NCBI RefSeq assembly: GCF_947623445.1
Contig: NC_135245.1
Coordinates: 18,049,501 to 18,113,500, forward strand
Origin: Clavelina lepadiformis
Taxonomy: Eukaryota; Chordata; Ascidiacea; Aplousobranchia; Clavelinidae
DNA length: 64,000 nt
Direction of reading: 5' to 3'
The notes beneath the pieces were generated by a model that saw only the letters and a program-made list of their open reading frames with translations, had not been told where the DNA came from and did not search any database. Below, piece after piece: positions 56,005 through 63,990 of the stretch. A program made the translations under genes and the position numbers. Within the stretch, counting starts at the first letter, position 1; each line of letters starts with the position of its first letter.

Positions 56005-59000
56005 TTAAGCATAACGCGAAGTCATCCAATTCCGGAATCCCTTTTGTTGCATTTTATGCACACAATTAGGAGAAGCGTCGCAACACGCCTTTCTGCTACT
56101 ACTAGTACGACGACAGAATCTGAAACAGAAAGTAACATTGAACATTTAATCTGCATTTACCACTTACGTCCAAGTCATTAATATATAGTCAAGAATGAAA
56201 TTGTCAAGCTGTCATCCCTGCTTTGTATAATGTGAGTTATGCAACAACTTGTCTTAAAAAATCATGTCAACTATTGTTAACATAAAGCTATAACGAAACT
56301 AAGTGCTTAGATCTTTAACTAAAACATTTCACGCATTAACATGTATAGTATATATCATATCATGAACACTGATGGTGCAAAATATCATTTATATGAACAA
56401 GACATGGAAGACTTAACCGAATTGTTGCTACTATTTAGTCTCCAATGTGATACCTGACCATAATTTTTTGTAATTTTTGTACAAACATGCATGTTTGCTG
56501 CATTAAATGTTACAGACAAATAGATTTAACATACTTGAATATCACTACAACTAGCACGACGATGATGATAATCAGGGCTAGAGTTACACCAACCACAACT
56601 CCAACCAACCGGCCATCTGCAAAAAGAGTTCACGATAATTGAGTGTTATAAGCTGTTGCGTGAATATCCCAAGCTTCCAAGATTAATTTCATATATTCAA
56701 CCGATTCTACTGGTACTTGTAATAGGACTTCATATGTGTATCAAATAGTTTGTATAAATGAAGATATTTCGTGCCAAATCAAAATTTGTCGTTAAAGAAA
56801 CATGTTTCGTCTGCATATTGGCTTACTGAGATTTTCGCATCGAGTTCCTGTGTACCACTGAGTACAGCTGCAGTGTGGGTCACCTATATGAAGCATATTG
56901 TTGCAACCACCATCGTTCAAGCAATAAGTCTGTCCATTTAATAAGCACTGTTCTTCACAGCTAAGAATACATATGTTGTTGGAAAAACAATATATTTGCT
57001 TTAGAATCTTACCAAATTCACAAAACTATTTCGTAATAAGCATAGCCTACTCTCTTCCAGGGTAGATAACATTCTTATCCCTGAACCCTTGGTTGCAAGT
57101 GCAAGTAAAACCAGGATAATTAATAGTGTCCACACAAGAAGCGTCTCTCCCGCAGTCATTAGTTGCATCATTGCTACATTCATTGAAGTCTAAGTACCAA
57201 TGAAAATAAACCTGGTAACTATTTGATAACTATAACTGTTCGATTTACAACAATCTAAACAATGAAGTAAGGTTATAAAAGCTTGATTACTTACTAACTA
57301 CAGATCCAGAGGTTATATTGCTGTCACCAGTTTCACCACTAGCAATTTTACTTGTAATCACACTTTGAATGTTGGCCATCGTAGTTACGTTTGCAAGTGC
57401 TACTTGCGTAGAAACAATGGTACTGCCGTTGGTGAAAACAAACTCCGAACTGTATCTTTCACTAATTGAAGAAGGAAGTATGTTGCCCACCTGAAAATTG
57501 AATAAGTCAATATTTTTAACAAAAGCACGTCAGATTGTTTAGTTATTAAGGATTAGATAAGAATAAAACTTCTGCCAAATATGCCAACACAACAAATAGC
57601 TCAAACAATTGTTACTTTGAAGCGTTCATTTACAAAATTTAAGCAATTGCATGCACTCACCGCAGTCTTGTATCTTGCAATTAAAGGCAAGGATGCGTTA
57701 CTGTTTGGATTGTTCAAATTCTCATCGAAAGGTATATTAAAGGTCAATCCTAGATTGAACACTTGGTAGGCTGCAAAATGAAGTATTTTCCGTATAAATC
57801 AACATTTAACAAATAAAGTTTTAATTGACAAGTTTGTTTGGTTGAATGTACTTACGGAGGCATTGTCCATTGTGAAGTGTTTGCGAAAATGGACAACTTG
57901 CGCTTGTAACAGTCACTAAAAATATAACCAATAATGATATTACTTTGGTGAGGTTTGTGGAAAGTCCATGACTGAATGCATATATTTAAAACATTGAAAA
58001 AAAGTGCAGGCAAGACTACCCAACTTTCCAGGCTAGATTTTATAAACTACCGGTATAGGTTAGTACTTTTTCAATTTTTTCCAAATTGATCGAAGTGCAT
58101 ACACCCACTAATGTATTTAGGGTGTGGCCATTGGGCCAACTTTTTTGGCCATGGCCTTTTTACATTTACCGCATTTTCCTTGTTTGTGGTTTTGATTTTT
58201 GTAATAGGAAACCGTTAAAATTAAGACACAGGGTGTCAATATTGTTGCATGGCATTGTCATCTGCTGAGCACAGACATTTATATTTTAAACTTACGAAAA
58301 GCTTTTCGCAGTTGAGATATTAATGTATGTAGCATCGACTGAAACGTCTGAATAATAAGTACATTTTTTGATTGTTTTGCATCGTTCATTGTACGCATGA
58401 AATGATTTCAGGTTAAGTTAATGTTTGATAAATAAAACATTATCATACATTATTTGTCAATATGTTAGCTTTGTATTTTTTCAGTTCAATAGTAATGTTA
58501 AGATTAGTTTTTATGGCACGTTTAGCATACTGGTGTGAACTATGGGTTAGTAACACCCTGAATATTAGGTAAAAAGTATGGTGCAAGATAGCCAGTACAT
58601 ACCTGCTGCAGTAAAAGTTGTGTCCATTATGTTTTCAACTGTTGTTCCAGGAGTAGTAGTTGTGGTGGTACTTTTCTCTGTGGTTGCAGGGGTGGTAGTT
58701 GTAGTTGCAGGGGTGGTAGTTGTAGTTGCAGGGGTGGTAGTTGTGGTGGTTGTAGTTGCAGGGGTGGTAGTTGTAGTTGCAGGGGTGGTAGTTGTGGTGG
58801 TTGTACTTGCAGGGGTGGTAGTTGCAGTTGAAGGGGTGGTAGTTGTGGTGGTTGTACTTGCAGGGGTGGTAGTCATGGTGGTTGTACTTGCAGGGGTGGT
58901 GGTGGTTGTTGTAAGGACAGATGTGGTAGAAGTTGCGCTTGTAGTTGAAGTTGCTGTGGAGTCATAAACAAAGTTTCATGTTTGCAAATATAAGTACTGA

Positions 59001-62000: not shown

Positions 62001-63990
62001 ACTTGATTTGTTGAAGATTCAAAGTTTTTTGGTTTGTTTGATCCACAAAACTCAACTCCAGTGTACTTAAAATTCGAGTATACGTTTTAAATCATATAAA
62101 TTATATATTTTATTAAAGGATTTTCCATGTAAAAATTTTAATAAAAATTTTGTTGGGATGACCTTGAAACAAAATGGATTCAAACATGCGATAACAAAAG
62201 CAATGAAAGAAGATTTTGAAACCACGCATTTCTTACACAAATTTTCTTACTAGTATGTTTCCGTCATAAACGGCCAAATAGTCATTAACTGTGTAGCTAC
62301 ATCCTTGCAATTCAAAGTCAAGAAATCGTACTTTGATCAACTGAAACATAAAATATTGCTTAAAAAATGTAATGTTTAGTTTGGAACTTTGAGTTAATTA
62401 GAAAATAGTCCACCTTGTTCGCAGGAGCTTGTATGATCCAAGTGCAGTTTAAATTGTTAACATAGTCGCTGGGATAATTTGGGGACGATATGGTTCCATT
62501 CCATTCAGTAATGATTGTTGGCTCAACACATGCGAGCTTGTTAATGTCAACTCCATATGATCCATTCGATGCAATTACTACGTATTCGTTTATAATTCAA
62601 AGTGTTATTTATTTTTTAATTAAAATCGAAAAGTATTAACAACAAAAAAATGAAATCACCTTCGTCGATCCATTGACTGAAATGTGATAATCTTGTATAA
62701 ACGCCAGGATATCCAGGCTGGGCGCAACCAATCCCAAACGAAGTTATTCCAACTTGATACCAAGTGTTTTCATTAACCAAGCAAATCAATGGACCTCCTG
62801 AATCACCCTACAAAAAAGGAAATATTTTGTGAAAAACTTCGTCTGCTATAGAAAACTGCAAAATGTAATAGAGAGATTAACAGCCTCTTATATAAATAAT
62901 AATGGACTAATTGCACAGAGAAACCGACATGACGTTGTTCTTTTGGTATGCGCTACTCAAATTTTGGTGCCAGTAAAGCAATATCAATAGAATGTCAGTA
63001 ATTTTCTCACATGACACGGTCCTACACCTCCATCGTCAAAATAGCCGACACAAATATGGGAATCCAGTACGTGAATTGACGACGAATACGAAACATTACA
63101 TCTGTCCAAATCGACGATGGGCACACGGGCCTGAAATAAGGTCTTAGGAGCAATAAACGGACCACCAGACGGAGCTAAAATCATTAAATTTATAACAAAT
63201 TTTCAATCTTTGAAGTAGTTAGGTTGAGTACGAGCAATAGAGTATTTAAAGTTATCACACACTTCAAATTATAAAATTATTGATTTAAATGACTGCTGAA
63301 TGTTTACGCACAAACATTTCCCCATCCTGTAGTAATACAAATTGTTCCTGCATCCGGATCAATGGATGAGTCATTGGCAGATGGATAGCAAATTTTTCTG
63401 ATGTTTGTACCAAATGAAATTGCATCTTCCAATTCAAGAAGGGCAATGTCATTTTGGAGGTTACTAAAAACATTGTAAGAACTAAGAAAACGTGGTTGTA
63501 CATAAAACTACAAAAGCACACACTTTAGTAACAGAATAAATTTGATAAATTTAACACCAGTGCAAGTTAGACTGAAATATAATTAAATATTAACTTACCT
63601 TGGATTATATGCTGGGTGCACAATAATGTTTTTCACCACAAGCAATTTTCCTTCGCCATTATTATCAAATGAATGCCTTCCAACGTACACTTCTAGGCTT
63701 GAAGGCCTACATATAGATATTAAAAATATTTGTTTATGGCAAAAAATTAAGGAACAAACACCAAAGAAATTAAAAATATTATAAAATGTTTTGTATAATA
63801 CAAGTCCGTTTATGTTAAAGCATCATCGAAATAATTCTTACAGAAATATATAGTTGACGCAATGAGCAGCAGTTAAGACAAATCTCTCATCAATGATCGA
63901 GCCTCCACAAAAACTACTTCCCGCCACTACCATGACTTGCCACGGCCATGATCCGTTTCTTGCCTCATTTCCTCCTATTATTCTCTGGTT
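56005..63990 (-). CDS. Mosaic membrane protease: trypsin-CUB-LDLa-trypsin-mucin-SEA-EGF-EGF-TM, 5' end beyond window
   Basis: 23 visible exons sum to exactly 1063 codons, every junction in phase. Domain order: trypsin 1 (63990-62660), CUB (62577-61933, with [15 protein letters not shown]), LDLa (61743-61633, six Cys, ending [10 protein letters not shown]), activation linker (61501-61440), trypsin 2 (61329-60150), Thr/Pro mucin segment (58953-58603), short Cys exon (57915-57856), SEA-like domain (57770-57295), two EGF modules (57189-57051 and 56960-56827), a transmembrane helix (56616-56535, [19 protein letters not shown]) and a 38-residue tail. Both proteases have an RIIGG activation site, [13 protein letters not shown] and GDSGGP, so the catalytic triads are complete. 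It is likely a type I cell-surface protein with an extracellular protease array. The weakest link is the long splice from trypsin 2 (60150) to the mucin exon (58953); phase fits (phase 1). More modules may lie to the right. Confidence 0.82.
58620..58940. repeat. Coding minisatellite, Thr/Pro mucin repeat
   Basis: Plus-strand units near gcaggggtggtagttgtagt, mostly 21 or 30 bases long and all multiples of three, are tandemly arrayed about ten times. On the minus strand they encode [12 protein letters not shown]-type O-glycosylation repeats within the single exon 58953-58603. The opposite-strand 129-codon frame is only a shadow of this repeat. Confidence 0.9.
62660..63990 (-). repeat. Tandemly duplicated protease unit (matches 60150-61329)
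   Basis: Five exons and much of the intron sequence here match the trypsin unit at 60150-61329 nearly base for base: the exon-1 start with its preceding TTGAAACTAG, the AACTATATATTTCTGTAAGA border, and the last exon. Exon sizes are the same (149, 108, 152, 164, 148). The unit was copied recently, or is kept similar by gene conversion. Confidence 0.85.

What the first reader, a model, noticed from the sequence alone, without database searches (positions are those of the whole stretch)
56005..63990. Membrane-anchored double-protease mosaic with mucin, SEA and EGF modules
The visible exons join without a frame break into trypsin-CUB-LDLa-trypsin-(Thr/Pro)n-SEA-EGF-EGF-TM. Multi-protease proteins (polyserases, ovochymases) and mucin-SEA-EGF-TM proteins are each known, but I know of no family that joins two trypsin domains N-terminal to a transmembrane-mucin ectodomain. 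Most module borders are phase-1 introns, the classic exon-shuffling class. If SEA autoproteolysis occurs, the protease array could be shed from the surface.
Basis: partly seen in the sequence, partly recalled or inferred. Interest (0 to 1): 0.75.

Follow-up and report, generated by a model that had tools for sequence, protein, structure and literature searches.

The report
Sea-squirt surface protein with six proteases
A sea-squirt gene appears to encode one giant cell-surface protein that carries six trypsin-type protease domains on a mucin stalk fixed in the membrane, and a related gene nearby carries three such domains on what looks like a different kind of anchor.

Summary
The window (Clavelina lepadiformis chromosome 6, matched by size) cuts the gene. 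The full model extends 13 kb beyond it: 69 exons, all 68 introns GT-AG, one 2,988-aa frame. It reads signal peptide, (CUB-LDLa-trypsin)x6, Thr/Pro mucin, SEA, EGF, EGF, TM, short tail. All six catalytic triads are intact; five S1 pockets are trypsin-type, one (T5) is changed. The first four trypsin-CUB-LDLa units are recent copies, 95-99% identical with introns. Two comparisons support joining array and tail: the SEA-EGF-EGF-TM cassette ends three MUC4-like genes on chromosome 4 with matching exon phases (17 of 18 slots); and a sister gene 230 kb away shares the signal-peptide exon, has three units, and seems to end in a Ser/Thr stalk, Ly6-like module and GPI-type tail. No signal-peptide-like exon lies between protease 6 and the mucin. 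Against: no transcript was available, the mucin acceptor is weak, and a stop with AATAAA follows protease 6 if its donor is ignored. A new variant of the polyserase/ovochymase kind.

The parts
62660..63990 (-). Trypsin domain T5 (five exons 63990-63842, 63706-63599, 63463-63312, 63174-63011, 62807-62660); triad intact, residues 189-195 read GPCHGDS, so the S1 pocket differs from the other five
61933..62577 (-). Sixth CUB domain (three exons 62577-62414, 62340-62251, 62065-61933)
   Evidence: PDB sequence match to cubilin CUBs
61633..61743 (-). Sixth LDLa module, one phase 1-1 exon
61440..61501 (-). Light-chain exon of T6 with the ECG cysteine that should pair with C122 of the catalytic domain
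   Evidence: pairing recalled from chymotrypsinogen
60150..61329 (-). Trypsin domain T6 (five exons 61329-61181, 61015-60908, 60771-60620, 60552-60389, 60297-60150); triad intact, D189; activation site NQR|IIGG
58954..60149 (-). Junction intron, 1,196 bp, between T6 and the mucin exon; the longest of the 68 introns
59226..59798 (-). Interspersed MITE-like repeat inside the junction intron; 63 other matching pieces listed in the genome; without it the intron is 623 bp
   Evidence: the class MITE is my inference from inverted ends seen by eye
58603..58953 (-). Thr/Pro mucin exon, 351 bp, phase 1-1; 72 Thr, 9 Ser, 10 Pro of 117 residues
57856..57915 (-). Linker exon before SEA (phase 1-1)
57295..57770 (-). 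SEA-like domain (exons 57770-57661 and 57490-57295) with FTNGSTIV at the expected cleavage loop
   Evidence: Pfam sub-threshold
57051..57189 (-). EGF-like module 1
   Evidence: Pfam sub-threshold
56827..56960 (-). EGF-like module 2
56535..56616 (-). Transmembrane exon ([19 protein letters not shown], mean hydropathy 3.59 over 19 residues, the highest in the model)
56005..56119 (-). Cytoplasmic tail exon and TAA stop; AATAAA 334 bases after the stop

Best explanation
One gene encodes a type I membrane protein of 2,988 aa: signal peptide, six CUB-LDLa-trypsin units, a Thr/Pro mucin stalk, SEA, two EGF modules, one transmembrane helix and a 37-residue tail. Shown in sequence: the exons, the frame, intact triads, the Arg-Ile activation sites and the paired cysteines. 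Inferred: each unit is made as a zymogen; cutting after NQR switches it on. Five of six domains have D189 and so should cut after Arg/Lys, so once one unit is active it can activate the others along the chain, a surface battery in which each active domain stays tied to the stalk by its light-chain disulfide. CUB and LDLa modules hold substrates or matrix; the mucin exon lifts the array off the membrane; SEA cleavage, if it occurs, lets pulling or shear release the whole array. The protease chassis was amplified by recent unit duplication and given its membrane anchor by phase-1 exon shuffling of a cassette that also ends MUC4-like proteins.
For: Continuous frame over 69 exons with 68 GT-AG introns. 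Signal-peptide exon conserved in the sister gene; first 200 residues 118 of 200 identical. All six triads, C122 and light-chain cysteines present; D189 in T1-T4 and T6. Purifying selection between diverged units, dN/dS 0.18-0.24. Cassette exons have the same phases in three chromosome 4 genes, 17 of 18 slots, where the cassette ends a larger ectodomain that has a VWD domain. The sister array also appears to continue by a phase-1 intron into a stalk and anchor. Junction donor scores 30th of 43 from the bottom and above 78 of 78 decoy GTs in the intron. No signal-peptide-like phase-1 first exon in the junction intron, and the first in-frame Met of the mucin exon is residue 27, inside the repeat. 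The longest intron owes 573 bp to a repeat.
Against: No cDNA or RNA evidence. The junction phase alone would fit by chance one time in three. The mucin acceptor is weak: below all 42 training acceptors in the first test, with 44 of 60 decoy AGs in the intron scoring at least as high, and tied lowest of 44 in the leave-one-slot-out test. Absence of a signal-peptide-like exon is also what random sequence usually gives (92.5% of 200 shuffles had none passing the donor filter). Reading through the T6 donor reaches a stop at 60070 with AATAAA at 60067. SEA and EGF are below Pfam cut-offs. The Ly6 and GPI reading of the sister gene has no Pfam match. Activation, specificity and shedding are untested.
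Confidence: 0.75

Rival explanations
1. Two genes: a secreted six-protease polyserase that ends after T6, and a separate mucin-SEA-EGF-EGF-TM gene that starts between 60150 and 58953.
For: Weak mucin acceptor. If the T6 donor is not used, 25 mostly hydrophobic residues and a stop follow at 60070 with AATAAA at 60067. The junction intron is the longest of 68.
Against: No signal-peptide-like first exon in the intron and no usable in-frame Met before the repeat. AATAAA is not denser in this intron than in all introns of the gene (1.67 against 2.23 per kb). The intron length owes 573 bp to a repeat. In three of three chromosome 4 loci the cassette follows exons of a larger ectodomain rather than standing alone, though those gene models were not completed.
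Confidence: 0.12
2. One gene with two products: full-length membrane form and a short secreted form made by not using the T6 donor.
For: Stop and AATAAA directly after the T6 donor; the review PMC9265791 says HrOvochymase and HrProacrosin appear to come from one gene with different mRNAs (passages).
Against: The read-through piece looks like T-rich intron read in frame; unit 5 read through its donor is also hydrophobic ([14 protein letters not shown]). No RNA evidence.
Confidence: 0.2
3. The array is not a working gene but a decaying or mis-assembled tandem repeat.
For: Units 1-4 are 95-99% identical including introns, the kind of stretch that can be mis-assembled or unstable.
Against: No stop or frame break in any unit, six triads intact, purifying selection between diverged units. 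The assembly is from 117-fold HiFi reads, QV 67.4 (PMC10884593, passages); read length against the 8.2-kb array was not checked.
Confidence: 0.04

Closest known systems
HrOvochymase (Halocynthia roretzi) and ovochymase/oviductin polyproteases
   Same: A tunicate polyprotease with CUB modules between trypsin-like domains: trypsin, 2 CUB, trypsin, 3 CUB, and a third domain without a typical triad (PMC9265791, passages)
   Different: No LDLa, mucin, SEA, EGF or transmembrane part is named for it there; three protease domains with one lacking the triad, against six with intact triads here
Polyserase-1 (TMPRSS9)
   Same: Membrane-bound chain with an LDLa module and three tandem serine proteases (PMC1435904, abstract and passages)
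   Different: Type II transmembrane motif at the other end of the chain, no CUB named; here a signal peptide, C-terminal TM, and CUB-LDLa before each of six proteases
Enteropeptidase, TMPRSS6 and matriptase group
   Same: CUB and LDLa ahead of a trypsin domain; enteropeptidase is the best PDB sequence match of unit 6 (1.3e-76) and TMPRSS6 matches across LDLa and protease
   Different: One protease per chain and type II anchoring (recalled)
Membrane mucins with SEA and EGF (MUC4-, MUC3/12/17-like) and the three chromosome 4 genes of this genome
   Same: Thr-rich stalk, SEA, two EGF-like modules, TM; cassette exon phases identical in 17 of 18 slots
   Different: The chromosome 4 heads carry VWD (Pfam 27.9 bits) and, by eye, EGF and FN3; no trypsin match was listed near them
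Sister array, C6:17860636-17875111, same genome
   Same: Homologous signal-peptide exon and CUB-LDLa-trypsin units; first CUB-LDLa of the two genes group at 98/95 support
   Different: Three units, and a Ser/Thr stalk, Ly6-like and GPI-type end in place of mucin-SEA-EGF-TM

Membership tests
Polyserases / polyproteases (several S1A domains in one chain) | Two or more S1A protease domains in one reading frame | tested here: met
   Six, with triads
Polyserases / polyproteases (several S1A domains in one chain) | Translated as one polypeptide | not testable with these tools
   No RNA or protein data held
Ovochymase (tunicate and vertebrate) | Protease domains interleaved with CUB modules and no LDLa, as described for HrOvochymase | tested here: not met
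   CUB present, but an LDLa accompanies each CUB; description from PMC9265791 passages
Type II transmembrane serine proteases (including polyserase-1) | N-terminal signal anchor, no cleaved signal peptide | tested here: not met
   N-terminal hydrophobic stretch is short (hydropathy 1.52) and ends in a conserved 24-residue exon, while the strongest TM is near the C terminus (3.59); no signal-peptide predictor was run
Membrane mucin with SEA | Ser/Thr/Pro-rich segment next to a SEA domain and a TM | tested here: met
   91 of 117 residues Thr, Ser or Pro; TM; SEA sub-threshold but 4 of 4 members match
Membrane mucin with SEA | Autocatalytic cleavage motif GSVVV or GSIVA | tested here: inconclusive
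   GSTIV, invariant in 4 of 4 cassettes; motif from PMC6954182 passages
S1A proteases with trypsin specificity | His57, Asp102, Ser195 and D189 | tested here: met
   Triad in 6 of 6, D189 in 5 of 6; T5 has G189

The most novel reading that the evidence does not exclude
Tunicates carry a family of cell-surface protease batteries: one chassis, signal peptide plus repeated CUB-LDLa-trypsin zymogens, grown by unit duplication and fitted by phase-1 exon shuffling with interchangeable membrane anchors (mucin-SEA-EGF-TM in one gene, Ly6-GPI in its sister), in which trypsin-type units switch each other on along the chain and the whole array can be released from the surface.
Probability: 0.45. Interest if true: 0.68.

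Novelty: new variant of a known kind. Interest (0 to 1): 0.52.

Why it matters
Multi-protease chains are known, but six intact trypsin domains on a membrane mucin stalk would be an unusual enzyme: a fixed stoichiometry of zymogens in one molecule, likely able to activate in a chain and to be released together. Together with the sister gene it offers a clean natural comparison of exon shuffling, the same catalytic head on two anchors and the same anchor on two heads, within one genome. Four units almost identical in sequence also make it a case for recent growth of copy number inside a coding gene.

Tried and rejected
PDB profile search with the four SEA regions gave no match at E 10, so SEA rests on Pfam alone. 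Pfam found no family in the sister gene's 154-aa end piece; the Ly6 reading rests on the cysteine pattern (recalled) and on weak alignments to neighbouring Ly6-like exons (scores 49-57). The trypsin tree resolved little (1 of 7 inner branches starred). A 55-bp candidate exon at 58349-58295 was rejected because it breaks the frame. An alternative stronger-looking acceptor near 59000 (CACTTTTTTTATAG) was rejected because an in-frame stop lies between it and the mucin frame (read by eye). SL trans-splicing onto the mucin acceptor was considered and thought unlikely because the first in-frame Met lies at residue 27 of the repeat with no signal peptide. C2:4201724-4250135 and C5:10649354-10656960 hold related CUB/LDLa/trypsin exons; they were looked at and not modelled. 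Paper searches for such an architecture (listings only, and one search listed 12 of 2,774) showed nothing with this domain order by title and abstract; that library holds open-licence papers only.
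Full report
Where it is. The window is C6:18049501-18113500 of a 209-Mb, 95-contig genome. The genome report of Clavelina lepadiformis gives nine chromosomes and 20.77 Mb for chromosome 6 (PMC10884593, passages); C6 is 20,771,506 bases, and C4 (25.07) and C5 (24.62) fit too, while C2 is 26.53 Mb against 26.54 in the table, and the total differs a little (209.06 against 210.1 Mb). I take the species as Clavelina lepadiformis with that small mismatch noted.

Observation. A trypsin search of the whole genome showed further exons beyond the window edge at about 2.74-kb spacing. 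I fetched 40 kb of upstream sequence. A blastn self-comparison found four more units, and an alignment showed units 1-4 at 95.4-99.4% identity over about 2.7 kb, introns included, with units 5 and 6 at 66.5-70.1% to these and 77.8% to each other.

Gene model. Joined by their splice sites, 69 exons give one frame of 2,988 aa from C6:18126571 to 18105505, a span of 21,067 bp; all 68 introns are GT-AG. Order: a 24-residue signal-peptide exon (MPAKSLFICILFSIWFHACKLQQQ), CUB, LDLa, then five times light chain-trypsin-CUB-LDLa, then light chain-trypsin 6, a 117-residue Thr/Pro exon, a linker, SEA, EGF, EGF, TM and a short tail. Units 2-4 were mapped from unit 1 by alignment; the other borders were chosen by hand. 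Module borders are phase 1 except light chain|trypsin (0) and EGF1|EGF2 (2).

Domains. Pfam gives trypsin, CUB and LDLa over their cut-offs on the pieces tested. The best PDB sequence match for unit 6 is enteropeptidase (1.3e-76), with TMPRSS6 matching across LDLa and protease. SEA reaches 20.6 bits against a cut-off of 26.4, and all four of four members match it; EGF is sub-threshold. The TM is the strongest hydrophobic stretch in the model.

Catalysis. His57, Asp102 and Ser195 motifs, C122 and the light-chain ECG cysteine are present in six of six domains; residues 189-195 are DTCQGDS in T1-T4 and T6 and GPCHGDS in T5. D189 implies cleavage after Arg/Lys (established for S1A trypsins, recalled). 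The zymogen site is NQR|IIGG in all six, itself a substrate for a D189 enzyme. Chain activation is therefore possible, and is inferred, not shown. dN/dS is 0.18-0.24 between units 1-4 and units 5 or 6, and between 5 and 6; among units 1-4 it is 0.33-0.68 on only 9 to 19 differences.

Is the tail part of the gene? For: the T6 donor scores 30th of 43 from the bottom and above all 78 decoy GTs in the intron. No ATG-start, phase-1, hydrophobic first exon lies in the intron, though 92.5% of 200 shuffles also lack one that passes the donor filter, and only this intron was searched. The first in-frame Met of the mucin exon is its residue 27. The intron is the longest of 68 (1,196 bp; median 136), but 573 bp of it is an interspersed repeat with 63 other listed matches in the genome, leaving 623 bp; another intron is 687 bp. 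Against: the mucin acceptor scored below all 42 training acceptors in a first test, with 44 of 60 decoy AGs at least as high, and tied lowest of 44 when each slot was left out; its pyrimidine share, 0.72, is high. Phase agreement at one junction has a one-in-three chance. If the T6 donor is ignored, a stop follows at 60070 and AATAAA at 60067, though AATAAA is no denser here than in the gene's other introns.

Cassette comparison. The SEA-EGF-EGF-TM protein finds three other loci with the same module order, in tandem on chromosome 4. A search for their exons with phases left free recovered the same phases in 17 of 18 slots, and equal lengths for SEA1, EGF1 and EGF2 in three of three copies and for TM in two; the third copy's TM slot was not recovered. 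Upstream of each lie long Thr/Ser-rich frames and further ectodomain exons; a stitched head piece matches VWD at 27.9 bits against a cut-off of 22.9; EGF and FN3 there are by eye. No trypsin match is listed near them in two capped searches. So the cassette is a C-terminal module that sits on different heads.

Sister array. At C6:17860636-17875111, plus strand, about 230 kb away, is a second array. Its signal-peptide exon (MSAKIVAFYVVFCLWFRNCKFQHS) and first units are homologous; 118 of the first 200 residues are identical, and the first CUB-LDLa of both genes group at 98/95. It holds three CUB-LDLa-trypsin units and, by my hand-chosen phase-1 joins, a Ser/Thr/Pro stalk, a cysteine pattern like Ly6 ending in DGCN and a hydrophobic C terminus typical of GPI signals. 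Pfam does not recognise the Ly6-like part. The 1,444-aa model is continuous, but phases and absence of stops were imposed on its unit exons, and exon Tb of unit 3 is uncertain. If right, the same catalytic chassis carries a different anchor.

How it most likely works. A type I surface protein displays six zymogens above a mucin stalk. Cutting at NQR|IIGG activates a unit; the light-chain disulfide keeps it on the chain; D189 units can cut their neighbours' activation sites. CUB and LDLa modules bind substrate or matrix. SEA domains are cleaved in one loop and the halves stay together until force separates them; GSVVV or GSIVA marks the autoproteolytic ones (PMC6954182, passages). Here the loop reads GSTIV, invariant in four of four cassettes, so release of the array by shear is plausible and unproven. 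A reproductive role is possible by analogy with HrOvochymase, a tunicate polyprotease that processes the egg coat (PMC9265791, passages), but nothing here shows the tissue.

Known or new. Polyserases 1-3 have two or three protease domains (PMC1435904, abstract and passages); HrOvochymase has three, one without a typical triad, with CUBs. The gene here shares the polyprotease principle, fails the type II anchor test and the ovochymase domain order, and adds a membrane-mucin end. Paper listings showed no such domain order, within an open-licence library. I rate it a new variant of a known kind.

Noticed in passing
L026-L028, C6:17860636-17875111 (+): Sister gene with three CUB-LDLa-trypsin units that appears to end in a Ser/Thr stalk, a Ly6-like module and a GPI-type hydrophobic tail.
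   Followed up: partly
L022-L025, C4:180815-216000 (-): Three tandem MUC4-like genes with a VWD-containing head, long Thr/Ser repeats and the same SEA-EGF-EGF-TM end.
   Followed up: partly
window 59226-59798: Interspersed MITE-like repeat inside the junction intron, with 63 other matching pieces listed in the genome.
   Followed up: partly
L032-L037, C2:4201724-4250135 and L038-L039, C5:10649354-10656960: Further loci with CUB, LDLa and trypsin exons related to these units, in other arrangements; the C5 locus has EGF-like exons after its CUB, and a cysteine-rich exon near C2:4251075 looks TIL-like by eye.
   Followed up: no
L012, near C6:18135409 and L028, C6:17877833-17878420: Ly6-like exons lie close to both protease arrays, a possible source of the sister gene's anchor.
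   Followed up: no
window 50353-50840 (+) and 53321-51663 (-): Open frames that look like ALDH7A1 and DENR exons, by recalled resemblance to the translations.
   Followed up: no
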